Shown piece by piece: positions 76-15,756 of a DNA stretch of 64,000 bases. Numbering within the stretch: the stretch's first letter is position 1; each line of letters opens with the position of its first letter. A program made the position numbers and the translations under genes. The notes under the pieces are model-generated. The model had not been told where the DNA came from. It was given only the letters and a program-made list of their open reading frames with translations, and made no database searches. This DNA is from a virus. The stretch lies in the IMG/VR virus record IMGVR_UViG_3300032893_000040, positions 1 through 64,000 of that record. One strand, 5' to 3'.

Positions 76-359
76 TTTCCCCTCTTGTCTTTGTGGAGGC
101 GGACGGAGGTGACGGTGAGTGGCATAAATTCGTATCCCGCCCCGCCGCAGTGATAGCAGTTATTCCCGCTCGGTCGCCCGTGTGATGTGCCGGGGGAATT
201 GCTGCTCGATGTCCAAATTGTCTCCTTGCCGCTTCCCCCGCAGTATTGGCAGCAAGCGTGAAGCGAGCCATCGCCCAAACGAACCACGGTGATAGGATAA
301 ACCGTGAACTTCCGGCGCGTCCTCACCCTCCCGGTAGCGGGTTTCGTGGAATGGGTCAT
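72..359 (-). CDS. small DnaJ-like zinc-finger protein
   Basis: A 95-residue protein with two CxxCGGxG motifs (CQYCGGSG near residue 37 and CYHCGGAG near 68). This is the pattern of the cysteine-rich zinc domain of DnaJ, without a J domain. It is probably a small zinc-binding protein; the partner is unknown. Its ATG overlaps the stop of the SbcC-like gene (ATGA) and its own stop overlaps the next gene in the same way, so it belongs to the leftward recombination operon. Confidence 0.6.
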   Translation of the reverse strand: MTHSTKPATGRVRTRRKFTVYPITVVRLGDGSLHACCQYCGGSGKETIWTSSSNSPGTSHGRPSGNNCYHCGGAGYEFMPLTVTSVRLHKDKRGK

Positions 360-1979
360 AGAGTTGCCTCCACATGTGAACCATCTTTGTCCCGGATGAC
401 TCGGAGCACCGAACTCGGTGCGAAGGCTGTATCTGGGACGTGAGAAATGATGTACGTAGGCAGTTTCCCCCTCACGGATACTATGTAGGAGAGGACTCGC
501 TCCATGGAATCCGCGTCCAGACCTTCGAAAATCTCATCAAAGAAGGCCACGTCCACCGCCACCCCGGCGTAGTCCTGCATGAGTCTCTGCCACGCAAACA
601 TCATTATCATGTCAATGCGTTGCTGTTCCGAATTGGAAAGCGATGTGTACGGAGCGATCTCTCCGCCGTTGAGTACCTCCAGAGAAATCTTGTCTTGAAC
701 GTTTCCAGACTTGGAGGTCGTAGTGCTGGACATCTGGACCGCGAGAAGTCCGTCCGTGAGGCCGACCGAAGCCTCGAGCGCGTAGGCGTTAAGCTGTTCT
801 ATGACCGAATCCATGAGCAGCGACATCACGCCGGACCTCTGGAACGCTTTCCACCAGAAATCGTACACGGCAAGTTTCTTCATGAGAGCGCGACTCTGTG
901 CCTGAAGTCGGGTTATCTGTCCACCTATCGTCTGAATCTGTTCCTTGAGATGTTTCTGGAGGTCGGTCTTACCCTCCGCGACAGAATTTAGCTTGGCTTG
1001 AGCATCCTCTATGTAACGACTGCAAATGTTGATTTCGTCCATGAGTGCCCAGTATTTCCTGGCCTCTATGAGTTCTTTGGACAATTCCTGTCTCGCCCTG
1101 TCTATGCCGCGTAACAGTTCTTCTGATGCTTCACGCATGTCGGCCTTGTGCCGATTCGTCACCTTCTGCTTACACGTCGGGCACGTGTCCATCTTGCCAA
1201 TCTTGGCCAGGGCGTCTTCCGCAATTTCCCGGTTGCGTTTCTGAACACTGAGTTCCGCTTCCACGGTAGCCACCGGACGCGGTGTGTTCATGTTGTCGGC
1301 AGGGAGTTTCGCTTCCAGGAGTCTCAGTCTATCCTTTTGTTCCTTGATAGCCTTTTCAAGCTCGGCTGTATTGGAACGCGTGTTGGCTTCGAGAGTTTCC
1401 TTGAACTCGTCCTGCTTCTCGCAGAGGACGCTGATTTCGCTATTGATGGACCTATCGTCCCCGATGGCTTTTGTCCGTTCGGCTCCAACGCGTTCACGCG
1501 CAGTGTGAAATCTCTCAAGGTCGATGAGTTCTTCAAGGAGTTCCTTACGAGCTGAATCACCTGCTCGAGTGAGGCGGAATGAATTGTGACCGAATAGAGT
1601 ACAGCCGAGGAAGAGCACTGGATTGATACCGAGAAACTCTTCGATTCGCTTTTGGTTGAGCGGGATGGTGCCCATTTCGACTTTTTCATCGTTTACCGTG
1701 AATTTAAGCGATTTACCTGCCACGCGTTCTACGGAGAACTTCACACCGTCTTTTGAACCGTGAACTATCACGAGAGCAGGGTGCTTGGACCCGCGACGCG
1801 TCACCGTCTTTTCCTCACGGGCAGTCACCCCGGTGATTCCCCACAGCAGGGCCTCGTAGATGGAACTCTTCCCGGCCCGGTTCTTCCCGATGACAGGCGT
1901 GAGTCCCGTCTTTGAATCTGAGGACGAGCTGATGGTACTGCATGAAGCTTTCGGCTACGATTCCCTCAATATGTATCAC
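356..1979 (-). CDS. SbcC/Rad50-like ATPase subunit of recombination nuclease (apparent +1 frameshift)
   Basis: SMC-type ATPase resembling SbcC and T4 gp46, expected to pair with the SbcD-like nuclease upstream. Seen: a Walker A (GKNRAGKSS) just before the long frame, a zinc-hook CPTC between coiled coils, a signature-like SLSNSEQQR, and Walker B VAFFDE near the C-terminus. The natural start is a GTG at 1979, preceded by ACGGAGGG and overlapping the previous stop. It encodes a typical VIHIEGIVAESFMQY N-terminus. That frame joins the Walker A frame only if one base (A, complement of T1904) is skipped after GAC GGG. The frameshift may be a sequencing error, a lesion, or programmed. The uninterrupted frame covers 356-1828 plus in-frame codons up to about 1903. 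Confidence 0.8.
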
Positions 1980-2110
1980 CGGAGCCCTCCGTAAAAATTA
2001 TCATCGTCTCCCTCATCTTCGAAGCCGCCGATAAACGCAAGGAACGCGATCACAGCCACCGCGATCAGAGCTATTCCGGTAGCTATCCCTATCGCAAGCC
2101 ATGGATTCAT
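1976..2110 (-). CDS. single-helix membrane microprotein between sbcD and sbcC
   Basis: A 44-residue ORF: MNPW, then about 25 hydrophobic residues (LAIGIATGIALIAV...), then an acidic tail (EDEGDDD). The ATG overlaps the SbcD-like stop (ATGA) and its TGA overlaps the GTG start of the SbcC-like gene (GTGA). Coupling on both sides strongly suggests translation. It looks like an N-out or N-in one-pass inner-membrane protein; function unknown. Confidence 0.65.
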   Translation of the reverse strand: MNPWLAIGIATGIALIAVAVIAFLAFIGGFEDEGDDDNFYGGLR

Positions 2111-3078
2111 TTGTCCTCCAGGAATTTTATGCCTACATCCACCATCTTTTTGATATCCTTATCCTTGATACCCTCCCGCCGTGCGTACTCCTCCAGAAGC
2201 TCACGATCGGTTGCCGCCTTTATCTTGCGGCCTTCCTTCAGCTTCGGCTTAACGACTACCCGAACATTAGACCCCACAGATTCATCGGGCGGAGCATCGG
2301 TGACGAGACGATAAAAATTCCCATCATTCGATATCTGAGACGGATCGTCCACGGTTATGAATTCTGGGTGTTCGATTCTGTAGGTAGCAGGAAGGCCTGC
2401 TCCTGTGTCAATGAGCACGCGGTGATGCTTCTTATCGCCGAAGTTCATCGGATAGGGGGCACCCACGATGTAGATGTTCTTACCGATGACCTGGGGTTCA
2501 TGTATGTGGCCGCAGTACACGCGCTTGAAGTTCTTGAGGAGCTTCGGGTCCACTCCCTTGAGAATCGGGCGGTTGTAGGACGCACCGAAGACTGATTGGT
2601 GCATATAGAGCACGAAGTCTTTTGCCTTACTCGGAGCGACGTGCGTCTCGAATCCTTCCTTGCAGAACGGAATGAATACCTCCATCTCACCGCTCTTGGA
2701 CGGGCAGAGGGTGGGTTCAGTGATGACGGTCGTTATCCCGGCCACACCCTGAAGCATGTAGGCCGTGTTGAAGACCTCCCCCTCCATGGTGATGTCGTGG
2801 TTCCCGGTGAGGATGATGATTTCCTTGAGGCTGGACCGGGACGCGGCTCGTTCGATCGCCTCCTTGCACAAATTGAACGCTTCCGGTTCCACCTGCCCAC
2901 GCTTGTGGAACACGTCCCCGAGGTGGATTATGCGATCACAACTTTCCCGAGCCCCGATTTCAAGTGCCTTCCCGAACGCCCGAATTTGAAGTAGTAATCG
3001 AGAATTGACCACCTTCTCGTAGTTGGCAAAGTCCTCGTGATTCCCGAAATGGGTGTCGGAGATGATCAGTGTCTTCAT
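2107..3078 (-). CDS. SbcD/Mre11-like metallophosphoesterase nuclease
   Basis: A 323-residue calcineurin-like phosphoesterase of the SbcD/Mre11/T4 gp47 type, acting as a DNA end-processing nuclease with the SbcC-like ATPase. All metal-ligand motifs are visible in order: SDTHFGNH at the N-terminus, IIHLGDVFH, LTGNHD, YMHQSV and YCGHIHEP. The start ATG at 3078 is chosen because GAGGG lies 5 bases upstream and the protein then begins MKTLIISDTHFG, as in the family; an in-frame extension upstream is a poor match. Confidence 0.88.
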   Translation of the reverse strand: MKTLIISDTHFGNHEDFANYEKVVNSRLLLQIRAFGKALEIGARESCDRIIHLGDVFHKRGQVEPEAFNLCKEAIERAASRSSLKEIIILTGNHDITMEGEVFNTAYMLQGVAGITTVITEPTLCPSKSGEMEVFIPFCKEGFETHVAPSKAKDFVLYMHQSVFGASYNRPILKGVDPKLLKNFKRVYCGHIHEPQVIGKNIYIVGAPYPMNFGDKKHHRVLIDTGAGLPATYRIEHPEFITVDDPSQISNDGNFYRLVTDAPPDESVGSNVRVVVKPKLKEGRKIKAATDRELLEEYARREGIKDKDIKKMVDVGIKFLEDK

Positions 3079-3185
3079 TGTGCCCTCAGAAAGTATGCGG
3101 CGAGGCCGATCAGAAGCACGGCGTACCAGAAGAGCGGATTGCACGCGGCGAACTTGACGTGCCAGCGCAGGTCGTTGAGTGTCAT
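3075..3185 (-). CDS. single-helix membrane microprotein upstream of sbcD
   Basis: A 36-residue ORF with a central hydrophobic helix (PLFWYAVLLIGLAAYFL) and a positively charged N-terminal part. Its ATG overlaps the stop of the winged-helix gene (ATGA) and its TGA overlaps the SbcD-like start (ATGA). Same architecture as the microprotein at 1976-2110, without sequence similarity. Function unknown. Confidence 0.6.
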   Translation of the reverse strand: MTLNDLRWHVKFAACNPLFWYAVLLIGLAAYFLRAQ

Positions 3186-4269: not shown

Positions 4270-4470
4270 ATGGAAGAGAAAAACAAGTTTTTCTCTTCTG
4301 GTGGCCAAGAGCAGGCCACCCCTTTGATTGCTTGCCAGAAATGCCAGCACTTCCGCGCTCACCACACCCATTTCACTGAAGGGATTTGCTTCCGGACGGG
4401 CAGGTACGTGTGGACTACCTGCCTCCCCAGCCCGGATTGGTGCCCACTCAAGTTTACAGGAGACCATTAA
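4270..4470 (+). CDS. small cysteine-rich (zinc-ribbon-like) protein
   Basis: A 66-residue protein with CQKCQHF, then GICFRTGR, TTCL and WCPLKF: four to five cysteines spaced like a small zinc-binding fold. The start at 4270 has AAGGGAG 5 bases upstream; an in-frame ATG at 4240 also has a GGGAG. The TAA overlaps the DNA polymerase ATG (TAATG), so it is the coupled leader gene of the replication operon. Confidence 0.6.
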   Translation: MEEKNKFFSSGGQEQATPLIACQKCQHFRAHHTHFTEGICFRTGRYVWTTCLPSPDWCPLKFTGDH

Positions 4471-6689
4471 TGCCACACAAGTTCACCAAGCGTCGTGAGG
4501 TGCTCGTCCCGGAGACGACCTTCAACGACAAGCTGAAGGAGATATTCAATGCGTGCGGTCTATGGATACTTGAATGCCAGTTGCCTATTAACGGCGGCCA
4601 CGGAAGGGGTATTACGGTATGCCTCTTCGACGAGATGGAACTCAACGCCGCAGGGAAGAAGGGACACAAAGGGTGGGTTGGCAAGAGCTTTGAAAGTGAT
4701 GGGATACGCTACGTTGTATTCCCTAACGTTAACGGCGGGATTTCTGATGTTGGCGGCTTTGAGCGTGCCATTGGTGTTCTTAACTCTGTGGAAACGCCAA
4801 AGGGATCCATCCGCATCATCACCACCCCGAAAGAACTCGCGGAAGCAATAGAATATCTCAGGACACTGGCGTACGTCGTGTGCGACTTCGAGACAACCAC
4901 GCTCGACCCCTATCTCCCAGGGGCACGGGTACTCACGCTGGCCGCTGGTAACAGGGACCGCGTGTACGTGATGCCGATGTCGCACAAGGACAGCCCATGG
5001 CGCGGGAACGTGACTGCCCAACGTGACTTCATCCGCGCCGTGTATTTTTCCAGACACATGGTGGCCCACAATGCCAAGTTCGAACTCCGGTGGTTCCTGG
5101 CCCTCGGGCAGAGTCTGCGCTACATAGACTTCGACCCGATGGTCGTGCACCACCTTCTGGACGAGAATTCGGCGCATGATCTTGAAACGCTTGCCGCCCA
5201 ATACACGAATTTCGCCGGATACTCCCATGAGTTTTCCTCTTCCCTTACTGATAAGCATAATTACGAGTCTGCTCCTTTCGATCTGCTTTGTCGCTACAAC
5301 GGTATGGATGTGCTGGTTACTGATTACGTTACCGTTGCGCTTCGTAACGAGCTTGAAAGGGCAGAGAACGACAAAATCCGGCAGTGTTGGCAGGACATCA
5401 ATCAACCTCTCATCAGTCTCCTTGCAGAAATGGAACACGCGGGTTTTGTACTCGACGAAGACAAGCTCGTGGAACTCACCGCGTGGTACGAAGGCAGGCA
5501 GGCATACTACGAAGGGGAGGTCAAGAAATACCGGCAACTCCAACAGTTCTTCCGCGATCGACCGAACTTCAATTTTGGAAGCACTGTCCAGTTACAGTCC
5601 CTCCTTTATGGGGAGCTGGGCTTTAAGCAGATGAGGGGCCACATGACGGAGCCATCCACCAAGTTCCCGAAGGGCCAGCCCTCCACCAACAAGGAAGCCA
5701 TCAAGGCGATGAAGGCGACCGGGAAGCACATTCCCGTGCTGGATGGACTCGCCATGCGTACCAAATGCAACTCGATGCTCAAGGCGTTCCTATACGTCTT
5801 CCAGGGTAAGCTGGATAATTCGACGGACGGGAAGCTTCACACCAACTTCAACCAGCACATAGTGGAAACCTTCCGGCTCTCGTCGTCCGGTCCGAACATG
5901 ATGAATCTCCCACGGTCGGAGGACCTCGCCAATCTCGGGCTGGAATTTCCCAAGCGCGTGTTCGTCTCCCGGTTCGACGGCGGGGAACTCGTTCAGGCGG
6001 ACCTTTCCCAGATCGAACTCCGGGTGGCCGGGATGTATTCCAAGGACCCCGTGTTCGTCAACGCGTTCGCAGAGGGGCGCGATCTCCACGGGGAGATGGC
6101 CGAATTCGTGTACGGCAAGGGCTACACGAAGGAACAACGCTACAAGGCGAAGCGCACCAATTTCTCCGCCGTCTTCGACATCGGTGCGGCGGCACTCGCC
6201 CCCCAGATCGAAGCCACGGTGGACGAGGCCCAGGAACTGATCGACTCCTTCAAGGAACTCCACCACGTGCTGTTCGAATGGTTCAATGAACTTTGGGCAC
6301 AGGCGCAGTTTGATGGTTACGTAGAGAACTTCCTCGGCCGTCGCCGCCACATCCGTATGGAACTTTCACGGGCCTTCAAACAGCATGAGATTGATGCGGT
6401 CCGCCGCTCCACCTGGAACTTTCCAATTCAGTCCTCTGCCGCCGATATCATGCTGACCGGGATGCTGGCTCTCCGCGAGGCCATGCGTAAGCACCAGATG
6501 AAGAGCGTGATTCTGGGGATGGTCCATGATTCAATCATCGTGGACGCTTACCCCGGCGAATCGGAACGCATGATGTCCGGCATCAAGTCCATCTTTGAGA
6601 ACCTGCCGTATGATTGGCTCACCATACCCGTTCGCATTGATGTTGCGCATGGTCCTAACCTTCATGAGCTTGAGGAATGGAACCCGTGA
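4470..6689 (+). CDS. family A DNA polymerase with 3'-5' exonuclease (candidate DpoZ)
   Basis: A 739-residue replicative polymerase. The 3'-5' exonuclease motifs are present: DFETT (D139), NAKFE (about 201) and YNGMD (about 276). Polymerase motif A is DLSQIELR (D511). Motif B is RYKAKRTNFSAVF (from R557), keeping R, K and F but with Phe at the position usually Tyr. Motif C is VHDS (D687), where the family norm is HDE. There is no 5'-3' exonuclease domain. The start follows GGAG and overlaps the upstream stop as TAATG; a longer in-frame extension has no merit. Because a PurZ-type gene lies in the same operon, it may be a polymerase adapted to 2-aminoadenine (DpoZ-like); that link is inference. 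Confidence 0.9.
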   Translation: MPHKFTKRREVLVPETTFNDKLKEIFNACGLWILECQLPINGGHGRGITVCLFDEMELNAAGKKGHKGWVGKSFESDGIRYVVFPNVNGGISDVGGFERAIGVLNSVETPKGSIRIITTPKELAEAIEYLRTLAYVVCDFETTTLDPYLPGARVLTLAAGNRDRVYVMPMSHKDSPWRGNVTAQRDFIRAVYFSRHMVAHNAKFELRWFLALGQSLRYIDFDPMVVHHLLDENSAHDLETLAAQYTNFAGYSHEFSSSLTDKHNYESAPFDLLCRYNGMDVLVTDYVTVALRNELERAENDKIRQCWQDINQPLISLLAEMEHAGFVLDEDKLVELTAWYEGRQAYYEGEVKKYRQLQQFFRDRPNFNFGSTVQLQSLLYGELGFKQMRGHMTEPSTKFPKGQPSTNKEAIKAMKATGKHIPVLDGLAMRTKCNSMLKAFLYVFQGKLDNSTDGKLHTNFNQHIVETFRLSSSGPNMMNLPRSEDLANLGLEFPKRVFVSRFDGGELVQADLSQIELRVAGMYSKDPVFVNAFAEGRDLHGEMAEFVYGKGYTKEQRYKAKRTNFSAVFDIGAAALAPQIEATVDEAQELIDSFKELHHVLFEWFNELWAQAQFDGYVENFLGRRRHIRMELSRAFKQHEIDAVRRSTWNFPIQSSAADIMLTGMLALREAMRKHQMKSVILGMVHDSIIVDAYPGESERMMSGIKSIFENLPYDWLTIPVRIDVAHGPNLHELEEWNP

Positions 6690-8347: not shown

Positions 8348-9220
8348 ATGCCGAAGGCACCAGGCCTCGATATGGCCCGCTTGATAGCGGGTTACAATGA
8401 GGCAAAAGCCAAACAGGCAACGGCGGCTGGATTCATCCGGCTTCAGGACGGTGAGAACAGGCTTCGTCTCACCACGTTCACGAATGGGGAAACCGGGAAG
8501 GGGGAATTGTACGTTCAGTACACCTCCCATTTTCTGGTGGACACGTCCGTTGCCTGCCTCAAGATGTTCGGGGAGCCGAATTGCCCCGTCTGCGACTACA
8601 TCGCAGAGCTGAAGAAGCGTGATCTGAGTGCCGTCGCCAAAAAGATGGCACCCAAACAGCGGTTCTATTTCAACGTCCTCGTCAAGGGCGAGATGAAAGT
8701 CCTTGAAGTCGGGCGGCAGATATGGGACCAGATCATGGCTTTCTTCGCTGACCCGGAGTACGGCAACATCGCCGACACCGAGTCCGGGTGCGACATCAAG
8801 ATCACGCGGTCCGGTTCGGGCCTGACCACCGAATACTCGGTGCTCTGTGCCCGGAACGCGTCCAAAGTGGTCCTCCCCGAGGAGCCGAAGGACCTCAACA
8901 AGCTCGTGGTGCGTCTCTCGCCCGAGGCCATGGAAGAGGTGCTCTACTCCAAGTACGAACGGCTGGATGATGCGGTTCCGTTCTCGGTCAATGACGCGGA
9001 AGAGGCGCACGCGAGGGGTGCTTCCGCCGCTCATGCATCCGACGCATCAGAAGGGGACGATTTCGCCCCTCCCCCGGCGCAGACCGGACCCCAGCCCGAG
9101 AAGAAGCCGATGACCAAGGCGGAGCAGGCAAGCTGGGCGGATGACACGTTCGGCAAGGGCAAGAAGCCGACACCTGCCAAACCCGCCAAGCCGACACCCG
9201 CGAAGCCGGGAAAGCGGTAA
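8348..9220 (+). CDS. gp32-like single-stranded DNA-binding protein
   Basis: A 290-residue protein with the layout of T4 gp32-type SSBs. An N-terminal ENRLRLTTF strand leads to CLKMFGEPNCPVCDY, a metal-binding loop with CxxC, and then aromatic strands (RFYFNVLV, WDQIMAFF). The C-terminal 90 residues are disordered and Pro/Lys rich, where most SSBs carry an acidic protein-interaction tail; an acidic patch (EGDDFAPPPA) precedes this basic end. It coats ssDNA at the fork. AAGGAG precedes the ATG. Confidence 0.8.
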   Translation: MPKAPGLDMARLIAGYNEAKAKQATAAGFIRLQDGENRLRLTTFTNGETGKGELYVQYTSHFLVDTSVACLKMFGEPNCPVCDYIAELKKRDLSAVAKKMAPKQRFYFNVLVKGEMKVLEVGRQIWDQIMAFFADPEYGNIADTESGCDIKITRSGSGLTTEYSVLCARNASKVVLPEEPKDLNKLVVRLSPEAMEEVLYSKYERLDDAVPFSVNDAEEAHARGASAAHASDASEGDDFAPPPAQTGPQPEKKPMTKAEQASWADDTFGKGKKPTPAKPAKPTPAKPGKR

Positions 9221-9513: not shown

Positions 9514-10644
9514 ATGCAACCAGGCAAGATCAATATGGTGATGGGCGGTCAGTGGGGGAGCGAAGCCAAGGGAAAGCTTGCCGGATATCTCGCCCTCCGG
9601 AAGAGTCCTTACGCGTCCGTCTGCAACTTCTTGACCAACGCCGGCCACTGGTTCAGGTCGAAATCGATGGGTGACTTCCTCGTTCAACAGCTTCCGATGG
9701 CGGCGGTCAATCCGCACGTGAAGCTCTTGATTTCGGCTGGGTCCGGCATCACGATCAAGACCCTGGAGAAGGAGATCGAACAGTTCGAGTCGAGAGGCAT
9801 CCGCATTACCAATCGGCTCACGATCGACCCGCACGCATTCATTATCGAGGAGAAGCACAAGCAGGAGGAAGCGGGGGGCGGACTCGGGCGAATCTCCAGC
9901 ACGCTCAAGGGATGCGGGGCGGCACTCGCGGCCAAGGTGGCACGCAAGGAGGATGTCGTCTTGGTGAAAGACGTTCCCGCCATGCACAGGTACGGGACCG
10001 TTGCGCGAGTTGCCCCCCTGCTTCACGGCTGGCTCTCTCTCGGATACACCATCATGGGGGAGCTGGCTCAGGGGTTCGACCTGTCGCTCAATCACGGGCA
10101 TCTGTACCCGCACGTCACCTCCCGTGACATCACGCCGTCCTCCTTCCTGGCGGACATCGGAGTACCCCCCCGGTACGCAGGGACCGTGTACGCGGCTCTC
10201 CGGACGTTCCCGATTCGCGTGGGACACGTGTACGACGACAAGGGCAACATCGTGGGTCACTCCGGCCCCCATTACAGCGATCAGACTGAACTCACATGGG
10301 ACGAGCTTTCCGCTGAGAACGGGCGGCACATACTCGAGCACACGACTGTGACCGGAAAGGTGCGGCGCGTGTTTTCGTTCTCGATGCTTCAACTCATGAA
10401 GTTCAGTGAGTACTGTTCCCCGAACGTGATCTGTCTGCAGTTCTGCAACTATTTCCGGAACGTGTATCCGGGCATCGGGTACGCGGACCTCATGAAAACG
10501 GAGTGCGGCACGCTCATTCGCAACATCGAACGCGCCACGAAAATTCCAGTGCTATATCTCGGGACCGGGGCCGACGATCTTGAGATGATCGATCTCACGT
10601 CGCAGGAACATCTCGACGCGGCGGCGGCAAGGAGTGTTGACTGA
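9514..10644 (+). CDS. purZ: PurZ-type adenylosuccinate synthetase homologue (2-aminoadenine pathway)
   Basis: A 376-residue PurA-fold enzyme. The P-loop reads GGQWGSEAKGK: PurA has D (QWGDEGKGK) as catalytic base, here Ser16, as in PurZ of vibriophage PhiVC8 as I recall it. NAGH (H45) keeps the general acid. TTVTGKVRR (277-285) is the aspartate-binding loop. The KLD element that reads guanine of GTP in PurA is replaced by CLQFCNY, fitting use of (d)ATP. Stretches such as AQGF-LSLN, TSRD-TP, FLAD-G and ELTW also match PurZ. Expected reaction: dGMP + Asp + ATP to N6-succino-2-amino-dAMP, the first step to dZTP. The start at 9514 has AAAGGA 5 bases upstream; 9508 is an alternative. Confidence 0.9.
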   Translation: MQPGKINMVMGGQWGSEAKGKLAGYLALRKSPYASVCNFLTNAGHWFRSKSMGDFLVQQLPMAAVNPHVKLLISAGSGITIKTLEKEIEQFESRGIRITNRLTIDPHAFIIEEKHKQEEAGGGLGRISSTLKGCGAALAAKVARKEDVVLVKDVPAMHRYGTVARVAPLLHGWLSLGYTIMGELAQGFDLSLNHGHLYPHVTSRDITPSSFLADIGVPPRYAGTVYAALRTFPIRVGHVYDDKGNIVGHSGPHYSDQTELTWDELSAENGRHILEHTTVTGKVRRVFSFSMLQLMKFSEYCSPNVICLQFCNYFRNVYPGIGYADLMKTECGTLIRNIERATKIPVLYLGTGADDLEMIDLTSQEHLDAAAARSVD

Positions 10645-11141
10645 TGGAAAGACCGAAACGAATCTTCTGGATGTTGGGTGAGCAACAGGCCGGGAAGTCC
10701 ATGCTCACCCACGTGCTCCGATCTTACGGGGCATCCGTCCTCCAGATAGGGGAGGAGCTTCGTAAGACCATCACCCCGCGTGAGTTTGCTGAGATGAGCA
10801 ACCCGTACGGCCCGGAGGAGGTCGAGAAGCGTGTGCAGGATATGATCTACACCGCCGTGCGGACCTTCGACCGGGACCCCCGGAGCACCGTGCTTGTCAT
10901 AGATTCAGCTCCCCGGAACCGTGGACAGGCCCTCCTCATGCGGGACGTACAGGACATCAGCACGGTACTGTTCCTGTCGGAGAACTTCGAGGTCCGCAAG
11001 AATCGTGCCCGTCAGAGATACGGCAACGATCTCACGCTCTTCGAGAAAAGGGAGGCCTTCGAGAGGGCGTGGCTCGCGGAGTTCCTTCAGACCTGCATCG
11101 AAATGAACCTTGACTACATCGAGCTGAAAGGACAGGCATAA
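10644..11141 (+). CDS. P-loop nucleotide kinase-like protein
   Basis: A 165-residue protein with Walker A GEQQAGKS near residue 12 and a strand VLVIDSAPRNRGQ near 80, resembling the (d)NMP kinase family in which a DxxPR follows the second strand. The ATG overlaps the PurZ stop (TGATG), tying it to purine metabolism. It may phosphorylate a (d)NMP such as dZMP; that is inference. The lid and NMP-binding regions are too divergent to assign a substrate. Confidence 0.6.
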   Translation: MERPKRIFWMLGEQQAGKSMLTHVLRSYGASVLQIGEELRKTITPREFAEMSNPYGPEEVEKRVQDMIYTAVRTFDRDPRSTVLVIDSAPRNRGQALLMRDVQDISTVLFLSENFEVRKNRARQRYGNDLTLFEKREAFERAWLAEFLQTCIEMNLDYIELKGQA

Positions 11142-11242
11142 TGGCCACACGTAACGGTGATGAGGCCCAGACTACCGTCATGATTGTAATTCTTGTAATA
11201 GCTGGTATTCTGCTCATAGCACTCCATCCATGGGTGAATTAA
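11141..11242 (+). CDS. single-helix membrane microprotein between kinase and dUTPase
   Basis: A 33-residue ORF: a charged N-terminus (MATRNGDEAQ), then TTVMIVILVIAGILLIAL as one hydrophobic helix. TAATG overlap with the kinase stop and a TAATG overlap with the dUTPase start. The third such coupled microprotein in the window. Function unknown. Confidence 0.6.
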   Translation: MATRNGDEAQTTVMIVILVIAGILLIALHPWVN

Positions 11243-11697
11243 TGGACGAGACCGAATTTCTGGTTTACATCGCCGACACGCGTGCTGGGATGCAGTTCAA
11301 AGCTCAGAAGGACGGAGACTGTGGATATGACCTCGAAGTCTGGTTTCCAAATGGGCAGACTGAGATTACTCTGCTCCCGTGGTCGTTCGTGGACCTGCCG
11401 ACAGGTCTGTGCGTTAAGGTGGGCGATAACGCGTGGGGTATGGTCCGCCCAAGAAGCTCTACATTATTTAAACGTAGACTTCTCGTGGGTGAGGGCACAA
11501 TTGATTCTGGGTATACGGGGCCTCTTTACGTCACGGTATACAACCCCACCCCGTACGCGGCGGTGATTAAGAACGGCGACCGTCTCGGCCAACTCATTCC
11601 TGTCCCCAAATTTAAGACTGTGAAGGTGACCTATGTCAGTGAAATGCCCAATACTGCGCGTGGGACCAGCGGATTCGGCTCAACCGGAGGGATTTAA
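11242..11697 (+). CDS. dut: trimeric dUTPase
   Basis: A 151-residue dUTP pyrophosphatase. The motifs are in order: DCGYDL (I), PRSSTL (II), GTIDSGYTGPLYV (III), DRLGQLIP (IV) and RGTSGFGSTG (V, the mobile C-terminal arm). It converts dUTP to dUMP and so keeps uracil out of phage DNA. Start at 11242 overlaps the microprotein stop (TAATG); the in-frame ATG at 11230 is an alternative. Confidence 0.92.
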   Translation: MDETEFLVYIADTRAGMQFKAQKDGDCGYDLEVWFPNGQTEITLLPWSFVDLPTGLCVKVGDNAWGMVRPRSSTLFKRRLLVGEGTIDSGYTGPLYVTVYNPTPYAAVIKNGDRLGQLIPVPKFKTVKVTYVSEMPNTARGTSGFGSTGGI

Positions 11698-12190
11698 TAA
11701 TACAACTACCACCTGGAAAGGGAAGCGAAATTTCGGCAAGACAGTGTGCGTGGACTTCGACGGGGTGATCGCCGGGATGCAGAAGGGATGGCGCGGTCCT
11801 GATAGTTTCGGGCCAATCATACCGGGGGCGTGCTTATCATTACAACGGCTTGCTGGCGATGGGTGGTACATCATTATTTTCACTACCAGACTTGTCACCC
11901 GTCAGTTGGTCGAATGGCTCAAAGGTAATTGCGTCCCATTTAATGATATCAACGGTCGGTGCTTCGTCGAGAAGGGCGTACTCTATGTGCGTCTCCAGCG
12001 TTACAATCGGTCCACCGTTGATTATCGCCCCGCCCGTCCCCGGTGGTACTGGAGACACAACCCGGAATGGGCCAGTATCAAGCCGATCGCGTCCGTCTAT
12101 CTGGACGACCATGGTTGGCCCATCAAGGGTGACTTCACGCCGAACGTGTGGAATGCGGTAGTAAGGGACCTGATAGATGGAAATTACTGA
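11633..12190 (+). CDS. HAD-superfamily phosphatase / nucleotidase-like protein
   Basis: A 185-residue protein. VCVDFDGVIAG (residues about 38-48) carries the DxD nucleophile pair. IIIFTTRL is motif II, and SVYLDDHGW supplies the acidic C-terminal motif. The family includes 5'-deoxynucleotidases and small phage HAD phosphatases. The chosen ATG overlaps the dUTPase by 65 bases in another frame; no better in-frame start lies before the catalytic core. Being between dUTPase and helicase, it may remove a competing (d)NMP; untested. Confidence 0.65.
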   Translation: MSVKCPILRVGPADSAQPEGFNNTTTTWKGKRNFGKTVCVDFDGVIAGMQKGWRGPDSFGPIIPGACLSLQRLAGDGWYIIIFTTRLVTRQLVEWLKGNCVPFNDINGRCFVEKGVLYVRLQRYNRSTVDYRPARPRWYWRHNPEWASIKPIASVYLDDHGWPIKGDFTPNVWNAVVRDLIDGNY

Positions 12191-13496
12191 ACTTACGCTG
12201 GGGATACCTGACGACTTCCAGCGTACACTTATTGCACTCATGTGTGCGGACCCGGATTGGTTGGAGGTGAACCGCCCGTTCGTTAAGGCGGAATTCTTCG
12301 ACCGGATGGAGCACAGAGCCGTGGTGGGGTGCATACTCGAGTTCTTCGATAAGCACGGGACTCCACCCACCTTTGACGTGCTGGATGACGTGATAAGGGA
12401 GAGGCTCCCCAATCCGGACCTCCTCGGCGCGTCTCTCCGGGAGATTTCCTGCGTGCAGGACATTGAAATCACTCTTTCCAAGGTGCGTCATGCCACAGAT
12501 AAGCTACAAGTCTTCGCTGAAACTCAACATCTCCGTGAATGCATCAGAGCCGGAGCAATTGCCATCGACGGAGGAGATATTGCATCTGCTCGCCGTGCAC
12601 TGGCTTCAGCCGAAGACGTTGCGCGGATCAACCACTCTGCGGTTCTCTCGATATTCGATGAAACTGGGATGGACGAGAGGTCCGATAAGGAGTCAGAAGT
12701 CGAGACGATGGACAAGATACCCACTCTTCATCGGGGTCTTGATAAAAAGCTTCGCGGAGGTTTTGCTCGTAAGGAGCTTCACATTCTTATGGCACCTCCT
12801 TATCGTGGCAAGTCGGCTGGCCTGGTTGATCTGGGGGGGAACGCGCTCTTTTGTGGGGCCAAGGTTCTCCACGTTACTTGTGAAATGTCGGCTAAGAAAA
12901 CCGCCAGCCGATACGACCTCAAAATCTCCGGCATGACGCGTGATGAGATAGAGGCTAACCCGACCGAGTTCAAAGCCCGGATGCTCCATTTCCAGAGCAC
13001 CTTCAAGGGAAATCTGAAGGTCATCGAGTTCCCCTCCCGGTCGGCGACGGTGGCCGATATCGAAGCCCAGATGAAGTTCCTGCTCCGTAGGCAGAATTTT
13101 TGGCCCGACGTGCTCGTGGTGGACTATCTGGACGAACTCAAGCGTCCGAACCGCGATAACGAGGCTTACGCACTCGGGCAAGTAACCTCCGAACTCCGTG
13201 CCCTCAACCAGAAGAGCAACACGGTCGGCCTGTCCGCTACCCAGACCACGAGACAGGGGTTCTCCAAGCAACGCCTCGACATGGACGACATCGGCGACTC
13301 CTGGGAAAAGGTGAAGATCGCCGACAGTCTCATAGGGATGTGTCAAACCAAGGATGAGGAAGATGACAACACCATGCGCCTGTACATGCTCAAGAACAGG
13401 GACAACCAGCGGAATTCATCCCCGGTCTTGATGCGGACCATATTTGAACGGATGACGTTCAAGGACATCACATTCGAGGAAGGGGCGGCAAAATGA
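12177..13496 (+). CDS. DnaB-like replicative helicase
   Basis: A 439-residue hexameric helicase with an N-terminal DnaB-type helical domain (FQRTLIALMCADPDWL) and a RecA-type core. The Walker A position reads APPYRGKS (about 206-213), lacking the first canonical Gly. VLHVTCEMS follows, then Walker B VLVVDYLDEL and a sensor region (GLSATQTTRQG). It unwinds DNA ahead of the polymerase and works with the primase at 14824. AAGGGA lies 8 bases upstream of the ATG. Confidence 0.85.
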   Translation: MEITELTLGIPDDFQRTLIALMCADPDWLEVNRPFVKAEFFDRMEHRAVVGCILEFFDKHGTPPTFDVLDDVIRERLPNPDLLGASLREISCVQDIEITLSKVRHATDKLQVFAETQHLRECIRAGAIAIDGGDIASARRALASAEDVARINHSAVLSIFDETGMDERSDKESEVETMDKIPTLHRGLDKKLRGGFARKELHILMAPPYRGKSAGLVDLGGNALFCGAKVLHVTCEMSAKKTASRYDLKISGMTRDEIEANPTEFKARMLHFQSTFKGNLKVIEFPSRSATVADIEAQMKFLLRRQNFWPDVLVVDYLDELKRPNRDNEAYALGQVTSELRALNQKSNTVGLSATQTTRQGFSKQRLDMDDIGDSWEKVKIADSLIGMCQTKDEEDDNTMRLYMLKNRDNQRNSSPVLMRTIFERMTFKDITFEEGAAK

Positions 13497-14827
13497 GACT
13501 GATACCAGCAGGACCGATACTTTCGGTAACGGGGCAGGATTATCAATCCATCTCGCTCGCATGGACCGACATCTCTCAACCAGGGATCCCGGTGATAGGT
13601 TACCAGATTTATCGCGGTCTAGGCTCGAGCCCGTCGTCGTTCAGCCTGATCGCTACCGTGGGGAGACAACTCACTTATGTAGATCAGGGCCTTTCCCCAT
13701 CAACCACTTACAGCTATTACGTAGTCGGGATTTACCAGCCGGGACTTCTCACGTCCCCATCCAACATCGTCACAGACACCACGGCGGCGGCTATTCCTTG
13801 GCTTTACGCGCTCCGGTCCGGGGCGATGGACATTTACAACGTGGCTGATCCAGCACACATGTCGCTCAATAACAGCGACACAGCATATTCCCAGGGAAGT
13901 ACAGCCAACCAGCAACTTGCCGATTCGGATTACCTGTATCTGGCAAACGACGGGAAGGTCGGCATCTATAGGTGGTCGGCCAATCCAACGGCACCCACCA
14001 ATCCGTTTCTGTATAGCCATGCGAGCCAGATAATAGTGAGGCGCGGCCTCACCAACTACAACAATCTCATGCTGTTGTGGGTTGGGTCTCCATTTGCTGA
14101 CATCGGCATCTATACCTACAACATCTCGAATCCGGCGAGTCCAACACAGCTTTATCATTCAACCGGGGACAGTGAGCTTGCGGCCGGACAGAAAGGCCCC
14201 GGTCATTCGGCATTCGCTTTTGACCCTGTTGGTGGGAAGCTCTGGTTCTGTACGGCGTGGACCGGATATAAGTACGAGATTTCGTATTTCCCCATAGCCT
14301 CTGACGGGACCATCGGGGCAATGAACACCATGTACCAGACCATCTGGGGCGGATCGAACGAAGCTTCGATGGCGTTCATCTACAACGGTAGGTTCTGGTA
14401 CAACCAGAACCAGACATGGCTCAAGTCGTATTACATGAACGGCGGCGGTGAAGCCATGACTCCGTGGACTTGGCCCGGAGCCGCGGGTGATTTCCATTAT
14501 CAACCTCCGAGAATCGTTGGGGGGCACTATGCAATATTTGGTGCTGATGGGGCCAACGCCGCTCACGGTGCGCTTATTGTGGTCGATCTCAACACAATGA
14601 CGGTGGTTGCCAACATCGGAACCCTGAATACGCAGTGCACGTCGTTCACGATAGCGGGTCCTTACCTGTTTTACGTGACAGGGACCACCCTCTATGCGTA
14701 CAACATCTCAAATCCGACCTCACCTTCACTGGTGAGTAGCCTCGGCAGTCTACCGGCCTCTGCCATCGGCTTGACAGGGTACGCGTCCACAGGCTGGGAT
14801 GGGAATAACGGACTCTGCACGTCATGA
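13493..14827 (+). CDS. fibronectin type III / beta-propeller-like protein in replication operon
   Basis: A 444-residue protein. Residues about 5-90 form an Fn3-like domain (LAWTDIS, YQIYRG, TYSYYVVGI). The rest shows repeated blocks around DIYNVADP, YTYNISNPASP and YAYNISNPTSP, spaced like blades of an LVIVD-type beta-propeller. No signal peptide is visible. The ATG overlaps the helicase stop (ATGA) and its TGA overlaps the primase ATG (ATGA), so it is translationally locked between the two. Such domains usually belong to cell-surface or virion adhesins. Confidence 0.75.
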   Translation: MRLIPAGPILSVTGQDYQSISLAWTDISQPGIPVIGYQIYRGLGSSPSSFSLIATVGRQLTYVDQGLSPSTTYSYYVVGIYQPGLLTSPSNIVTDTTAAAIPWLYALRSGAMDIYNVADPAHMSLNNSDTAYSQGSTANQQLADSDYLYLANDGKVGIYRWSANPTAPTNPFLYSHASQIIVRRGLTNYNNLMLLWVGSPFADIGIYTYNISNPASPTQLYHSTGDSELAAGQKGPGHSAFAFDPVGGKLWFCTAWTGYKYEISYFPIASDGTIGAMNTMYQTIWGGSNEASMAFIYNGRFWYNQNQTWLKSYYMNGGGEAMTPWTWPGAAGDFHYQPPRIVGGHYAIFGADGANAAHGALIVVDLNTMTVVANIGTLNTQCTSFTIAGPYLFYVTGTTLYAYNISNPTSPSLVSSLGSLPASAIGLTGYASTGWDGNNGLCTS

Positions 14828-15756
14828 TAAACGTCAATCAAATCGCCGCCGTATTCGGAACGATCTGGGATTCACACGGTCCCGAGTACAAAGTCACGTG
14901 CCCCAAGTGTAGCACGAAGGCACTCTGGATTAACGTGAGGAAGCACGCTTATCACTGCTTCTCCTGCGGGGACGGGGGGGCACTCCAGCTTTTGGTTCCT
15001 GGATGGGCACCGAGTATCACGGCTCAATGGGTCGGGGCGAGTGAGAAGGAGACATTTGAAATTCCGGATGTCCTTCCACTTAGCTACATGAGGATAAGGT
15101 CTCGATGCGACTATCGGCCGGGGTGGGACTACATCGAGCATCGTGGAGTTCAGGCCGGGGCGGTGGAATGGGGTGTCGTGCCCGGAGATTCGGCTGTGTA
15201 CTTCCCGATGAGGGAGCAGGGTAGAATAGTTTATTGGCAATCCCGGTCTCACTCCTGGGTGGAGAAGCGCAAAACCCAGAACCCGAAGGGTATTGCTAAA
15301 AGTGAAGTCGTGTATCGGATTGATGAATTGGGGGGCGGGGATGTTTTTCACGCGATCTGTATCATCGTGGAGGGAATCTTCGATGCGCTCCGGGTGGGCG
15401 GCGTGGCCACCCTCGGCAAGACCTGCAGTCCGGCACAGGCTTATAAGATTCTGAACCGGAGGCCTTACGTAATCTTCGTGGTGTACGACGATGATGCGTA
15501 TGAGGCTTCGAAGGTCACGGCGAAGATGTTCTCGGAGATGGACCGGAGCATACCTGCGATTCCTGTTTACATCACCGGGGGTGACCCTGCTGATCTCGGA
15601 TGGGATTACGTGAGGTTGGCTATCAGAGCGGCCCTTTGGGGCCATGAATCAATTTGCTCACTATGCGGCGTAAGCGCGAAATCGATCGAGACACGGTTGC
15701 TGGAGATGTCCCCAAAGACTGCGCTATCATGCTCCCGGTTATCTCCACCGCGTTAG
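14824..15756 (+). CDS. DnaG-type primase with zinc finger and TOPRIM core
   Basis: A 310-residue primase. An N-terminal zinc finger CPKC...HAYHCFSC (about 25-50) recognises the template. The TOPRIM motifs are IIVEGIFDALRV (catalytic Glu) and VVYDDDAYE (Asp cluster). It lacks a C-terminal helicase, consistent with a separate DnaB-like protein. The last 45 codons overlap the sigma-like gene on the other strand, converging tail to tail. Confidence 0.85.
   Translation: MINVNQIAAVFGTIWDSHGPEYKVTCPKCSTKALWINVRKHAYHCFSCGDGGALQLLVPGWAPSITAQWVGASEKETFEIPDVLPLSYMRIRSRCDYRPGWDYIEHRGVQAGAVEWGVVPGDSAVYFPMREQGRIVYWQSRSHSWVEKRKTQNPKGIAKSEVVYRIDELGGGDVFHAICIIVEGIFDALRVGGVATLGKTCSPAQAYKILNRRPYVIFVVYDDDAYEASKVTAKMFSEMDRSIPAIPVYITGGDPADLGWDYVRLAIRAALWGHESICSLCGVSAKSIETRLLEMSPKTALSCSRLSPPR

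What the first reader, a model, noticed from the sequence alone, without database searches (positions are those of the whole stretch)
9514..10644. PurZ homologue: the phage probably uses 2-aminoadenine instead of adenine
The protein has the PurA fold but Ser in place of the catalytic Asp, keeps the aspartate loop TTVTGKVRR and general-acid His, and has replaced the guanine-specific KLD by LQF. These changes match PurZ, which acts on dGMP with ATP. If correct, phage DNA may contain Z, resisting many restriction enzymes.
Basis: partly seen in the sequence, partly recalled or inferred. Interest (0 to 1): 0.92.

Follow-up and report, generated by a model that had tools for sequence, protein, structure and literature searches.

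The report
Phage gene cluster for 2-aminoadenine DNA
This uncultured phage carries a gene whose enzyme very probably makes the building block for DNA in which adenine is replaced by 2-aminoadenine, and the genes beside it form a third, apparently undescribed, version of the gene set that phages use for this.

Summary
In detail: 9514-10644 (+) encodes an intact PurA-fold enzyme with Ser for the catalytic Asp, the aspartate loop, the general-acid His and an adenine-type donor pocket (LQFCN). The PurZ reading is supported: in trees and structure search it falls with phage PurZ, not with PurA or the PurZ0 subgroup. Ser alone is not diagnostic; at least 79 cellular genomes encode Ser-type relatives.

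The neighbourhood adds more. PurZ lies in a replication operon (PolA, SSB, PurZ, adenylate-kinase-like kinase, dUTPase, HAD, DnaB, primase). The kinase sits directly behind PurZ in 25 distinct phages. The dUTPase is of the type found beside PurZ: 73 of the 79 nearest loci scanned also hold PurZ, and its best cultured-phage hits are in PurZ0 phages, where DutZ hydrolyses dATP and dGTP. DatZ, MazZ and DmtZ were not found. PolA is neither known DpoZ class but shares their helix-O Tyr-to-Phe change.

Best reading: a third architecture of the 2-aminoadenine system, with DutZ (or a dUTPase_2 domain) in place of DatZ/MazZ plus a phage kinase, possibly for dZMP. Z in the DNA and all enzyme activities are inferred, not shown. 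New variant of a known kind.

The parts
9514..10644 (+). purZ: divergent 2-amino-deoxyadenylosuccinate synthetase (ORF open from 9508)
10644..11141 (+). adenylate-kinase-fold NMP kinase, candidate dZMP kinase; its ATG overlaps the purZ stop codon by one base
   Evidence: AF2 pLDDT 88 and Foldseek adenylate kinases; directly behind PurZ in 25 distinct phages, PRxxxQ in all
11230..11697 (+). DutZ-like trimeric-type dUTPase, candidate dATP/dGTP pyrophosphohydrolase
11633..12190 (+). small HAD-superfamily phosphatase-like protein; possible nucleotidase, loosely conserved near PurZ
4386..6689 (+). family A DNA polymerase (PolA) with Phe at the Tyr766-equivalent of helix O (start codon uncertain)
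8348..9220 (+). single-strand DNA-binding protein, conserved directly upstream of PurZ
12177..13496 (+). DnaB-like replicative helicase
14824..15756 (+). DNA primase (DnaG-type zinc ribbon)

Best explanation
The gene encodes a true but divergent phage PurZ. It joins aspartate to dGMP with ATP to give dSMP; host PurB would release dZMP; the kinase encoded directly behind it (adenylate-kinase fold) would phosphorylate dZMP towards dZTP; the DutZ-like dUTPase would break down dATP and dGTP, so that adenine is kept out of DNA and dGMP is supplied to PurZ; the phage's own PolA, with the helix-O Tyr-to-Phe change, would copy the genome with Z in place of A. Shown here: family membership, fold, active-site residues, operon structure and conserved co-occurrence. 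Inferred: every enzymatic activity, the kinase substrate, and Z in the virion DNA. The architecture (PurZ, kinase, DutZ or a dUTPase_2 domain, no DatZ/MazZ found) is a third one beside the two described (PurZ with DatZ/MazZ; PurZ0 with DutZ/DmtZ).
For: Tree position inside phage PurZ; PurZ structures as best fold matches; pocket residues; conserved PolA-SSB-PurZ-kinase-(dUTPase)-DnaB order; kinase behind PurZ in 25 distinct phages; dUTPase nearest to PurZ-linked dUTPases, whose studied members hydrolyse dATP and dGTP (PMC12884076); kinase fused to dUTPase_2, NDT or dUTPase domains at the same place in sister phages; Phe in helix O.
Against: NCBIfam PurZ cut-off not met (229 of 300); NAGHT is NAGHW and two donor-pocket residues differ; PolA is not a known DpoZ by model; the Phe mark is not significant after kinship correction and sister PolAs keep Tyr; no DatZ or MazZ found; the dUTPase could be an ordinary one.
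Confidence: 0.75

Rival explanations
1. PurZ is active but Z only partly replaces A, because the polymerase is not a selective DpoZ and there is no DatZ to empty the dATP pool.
For: PolA far below the DpoZ cut-offs; most sister PolAs keep Tyr at the helix-O position; no DatZ found.
Against: A DutZ-like enzyme is present in its place, and studied DutZ prefers dATP over dGTP (PMC12884076); S-2L replaces all A with an unselective PrimPol aided by DatZ (PMC8065100).
Confidence: 0.13
2. The enzyme makes another product, or Z serves as an intermediate for a further modified base or for a role outside the genome.
For: Cellular Ser-type relatives sit in a conserved operon of unknown role, so related enzymes are used outside Z-genome phages.
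Against: The gene lies inside the replication operon in many phages; no base-modifying enzyme was recognised among the genes examined around purZ.
Confidence: 0.06
3. It is an ordinary auxiliary PurA that makes adenylosuccinate from IMP with GTP.
For: Archaeal PurA is the next best relative in sequence and fold.
Against: Catalytic Asp replaced by Ser, guanine-recognising Asp of the donor pocket lost, PurZ-type insertion behind Val238; tree position.
Confidence: 0.06

Closest known systems
Vibriophage phiVC8 PurZ (structures 6FM1, 6FKO, 6TNH) with DatZ, MazZ-2 and DpoZ
   Same: PurZ-type active site, adenine-type donor pocket, fold; 36% identity
   Different: phiVC8 has DatZ, MazZ and DpoZ; the window has a kinase, a DutZ-like dUTPase and an unrelated PolA lineage
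PurZ0 phages Wayne and Ghobes (DutZ, DmtZ, DUF5664; PMC12884076)
   Same: A DutZ-type dUTPase downstream of the PurA-like gene; Phe in helix O of PolA
   Different: PurZ0 falls elsewhere in the tree and keeps Asp in the donor pocket; no DmtZ found in the window
Bacillus phage vB_BpsS-140 (cultured)
   Same: Nearest cultured PurZ, 41%; has an adjacent adenylate kinase and dUTPase pair, no DatZ or MazZ annotated
   Different: Kinase and dUTPase lie about 9 kb from purZ; DNA polymerase III type (PMC6375668); its dUTPase groups with non-PurZ ones
Cyanophage S-2L Z-cluster (datZ, mazZ, purZ)
   Same: PurZ chemistry; replication without a DpoZ-class polymerase
   Different: S-2L uses PrimPol plus DatZ and MazZ (PMC8342488)

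Membership tests
PurZ | Ser in place of the PurA catalytic Asp | tested here: met
   Ser18; necessary but not sufficient, because cellular relatives share it
PurZ | Adenine-type donor pocket instead of the GTP-specific Asp motif | tested here: met
   LQFCN with Asn314; Asn311 is Gln here
PurZ | Groups with phage PurZ in a rooted tree | tested here: met
   96/87; one search agrees
PurZ | NCBIfam NF038379 curated cut-off of 300 bits | tested here: not met
   228.8 bits; phage OH, which has purZ, mazZ and datZ, also scores only 241, so this is an annotation threshold rather than a defining trait
PurZ | Makes dSMP from dGMP and Asp with ATP | not testable with these tools
   needs a purified enzyme
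PurZ0 | Groups with Wayne and Ghobes; Asp kept in the donor pocket | tested here: not met
DutZ | Groups with dUTPases of PurZ phages | tested here: met
   88/82, moderate support with few control sequences; best cultured hits in PurZ0 phages
DutZ | Hydrolyses dATP and dGTP | not testable with these tools
   needs a purified enzyme
DpoZ | NCBIfam DpoZ cut-offs (500 and 350 bits) | tested here: not met
   70.8 and 59.2 bits, against 909 for phiVC8 and 1145 for Wayne
DpoZ | Phe in helix O in place of Tyr, shared by both DpoZ classes | tested here: met
   link with PurZ not significant after kinship correction
DpoZ | Prefers dZTP over dATP | not testable with these tools
   needs a polymerase assay
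Classical Z-cluster (purZ, datZ, mazZ) | DatZ and MazZ present | tested here: not met
   no hit in the window or the rest of the record at E 0.1 with home-built models; the record may be incomplete

The most novel reading that the evidence does not exclude
A third, separately assembled Z-genome system: PurZ coupled to a dedicated phage dZMP kinase and a DutZ-type dATP/dGTP hydrolase, with a PolA that reached Z preference independently of both known DpoZ classes.
Probability: 0.4. Interest if true: 0.76.

Novelty: new variant of a known kind. Interest (0 to 1): 0.64.

Why it matters
It suggests that phages have assembled the 2-aminoadenine system in at least three ways, mixing parts thought to belong to separate lineages (DutZ with a PurZ that is not PurZ0). 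It points to a phage kinase that may supply the dZMP phosphorylation otherwise left to the host, which would be useful for making Z-DNA in cells. It also names a cultured relative, vB_BpsS-140, in which part of the idea can be tested directly.

Tried and rejected
PurA paralogue: rejected on tree, residues and context. PurZ0: rejected on tree and donor pocket. DpoZ by model: not met. Ser as proof: rejected, since cellular proteins have it. Helix-O Phe as proof: rejected, the kinship-corrected test has too few pairs. Viral scan with the single PurZ sequence found nothing; the genome scan with A1 and viral scan with A4 gave no usable pattern and were replaced by A3 and A5. HAD as a core part: only loosely conserved. 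PADLOC gave no match for PurZ, the kinase or the tested cellular relatives. The DUF550-type Pfam search of the record is uninformative because its controls were silent.

Full report
Observation. The window is 64,000 of the 65,636 bases of an IMG/VR virus record. Pfam, NCBIfam and PHROGs all place it in the adenylosuccinate synthetase family, and PurZ is the best NCBIfam model at 228.8 bits against 184.7 for archaeal PurA. The closest cultured-phage protein is that of Bacillus phage vB_BpsS-140 (41%), then Vibrio phage phiVC8 PurZ (36%). The AlphaFold2 model (pLDDT 90.9) is closest to phiVC8 PurZ solved with dGMP and an ATP analogue, then to Pyrococcus PurA.

Is it PurZ? A tree of 80 proteins with one archaeal PurA puts it in a phage PurZ clade (96/87), outside the DatZ-bearing group and apart from PurZ0 of Wayne and Ghobes. 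A wider tree with cellular relatives gives the same picture. Residues that contact dGMP in the S-2L structure (PMC8342488) are kept: the Ser, the NA of NAGH, Thr132, Gln188, Arg146, Val238 and the insertion behind it. Three residues near the ATP donor differ (Thr to Trp after NAGH, Asn to Gln, Pro to Ala); the Trp also occurs in two DatZ-bearing phages. The curated cut-off of 300 bits is not met, but Ochrobactrum phage OH, which has purZ, mazZ and datZ, also scores only 241.

A caution on the Ser argument. A scan of prokaryote genomes found at least 130 loci that encode a relative; in 79 of the 80 kept, Ser stands at the catalytic place. One of the scan patterns itself contained the Ser, so this shows that such proteins exist and does not estimate their share. 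Most keep Asp in the donor pocket (NHLD, MGLD), which suggests GTP, and the typical ones tested score better as archaeal PurA than as PurZ, the reverse of the window protein. Ser is therefore not sufficient for calling a Z phage.

Neighbourhood. The order PolA, SSB, PurZ, kinase, (dUTPase), DnaB, primase recurs in about ten contigs of the same clade. The kinase start overlaps the purZ stop codon in the window, and the kinase lies directly behind PurZ in 25 distinct phages; all carry PRxxxQ, most of them the adenylate-kinase form DGxPRxxxQ. From general knowledge of adenylate kinases (own knowledge, not tested here) this Gln contacts the N1/N6 edge of the base, which adenine and 2-aminoadenine share; hence the guess that dZMP is the substrate. 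The fold is confirmed as adenylate kinase. In sister phages the kinase is fused to a dUTPase_2 domain and in L186 also to an NDT-like domain (separate genes in L179/L254); in L187 it is fused to a trimeric-type dUTPase. So two unrelated dUTPase folds occupy the same place behind the kinase.

The dUTPase. Its best hits among cultured phages are dUTPases of actinobacterial phages; each of four checked (Wayne, FireCastle, Olihed, Sapo) has a PurA-like gene close upstream. The DutZ enzymes of Ghobes and Wayne hydrolyse dATP and dGTP (PMC12884076). Of the 79 nearest contig loci from a scan, 73 also hold a PurZ gene; the scan patterns came from PurZ-phage dUTPases and many loci are near-copies, so this number is biased upward. 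In a tree the PurZ-linked dUTPases separate from the others with moderate support (88/82); the exceptions are BpsS-140 and a Moorella phage.

Polymerase. The window PolA is not DpoZ by model and falls in a third PurZ-rich PolA group (weak support). Its helix O has Phe where ordinary PolA has Tyr766, the single mark shared by both known DpoZ classes (PMC8599892). Non-Tyr occurs in 54 of 101 PurZ loci and 3 of 77 control loci, but a kinship-corrected test has too few pairs to be significant, and most sister PolAs keep Tyr. This is suggestive only.

What is missing. No DatZ, MazZ, dUTPase_2 or NDT domain was found in the window or the last 1.6 kb. The record is not known to be complete, so absence is provisional.

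Comparison with the literature. PMC12884076 describes two sets in cultured phages: PurZ with DatZ and MazZ-2 or DUF550; PurZ0 with DutZ, DmtZ and DUF5664. Its main text does not mention a kinase. The window combines a PurZ that is not PurZ0 with DutZ and a kinase. The literature search covered open-access papers only, so an earlier description elsewhere cannot be excluded.

Verdict. PurZ and a Z pathway are well supported by sequence, structure and context; Z in the DNA, full replacement of adenine and restriction resistance are untested. New variant of a known kind.

Noticed in passing
L094-L172 (cellular genomes), e.g. L150:11062-12126, L132:5397-7478, L123:12110-12715: Cellular Ser-type PurA/PurZ relatives sit in a conserved operon: a dCTP-deaminase-like protein in 53 of 77 loci, an RNase_H_2 multidomain protein in 52, a deoxynucleoside kinase in 25. 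PADLOC gives only weak matches. Role unknown; could be defence or nucleotide metabolism.
   Followed up: partly
L196, L199, L214, L216, L227, L229, L238-L240 and L074, L076, L079, L083, L086: Two further PurZ clades, the first mainly on large contigs (up to 395 kb), show none of the known partner genes (DatZ, MazZ, DutZ, NDT, kinase) near PurZ.
   Followed up: no
L186:11140-12693: Single ORF with kinase, dUTPase_2 and NDT-like domains directly behind PurZ.
   Followed up: partly
L185, L258, L042, L093 and the group of Ochrobactrum phage OH (L007): PolA of some PurZ phages has Asn, Thr or Ser at the normally invariant helix-O Tyr.
   Followed up: no
13493-14827 +: A 444-aa protein with a fibronectin-III-like start lies between DnaB and primase; no relative in the compared contigs.
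   Followed up: no
356-3144 -: SbcC- and SbcD/Mre11-like genes on the opposite strand at the left end.
   Followed up: no
L008:32089-33222 (Gordonia phage Ghobes): Ghobes is annotated with its own adenylosuccinate lyase, the step otherwise left to the host.
   Followed up: no
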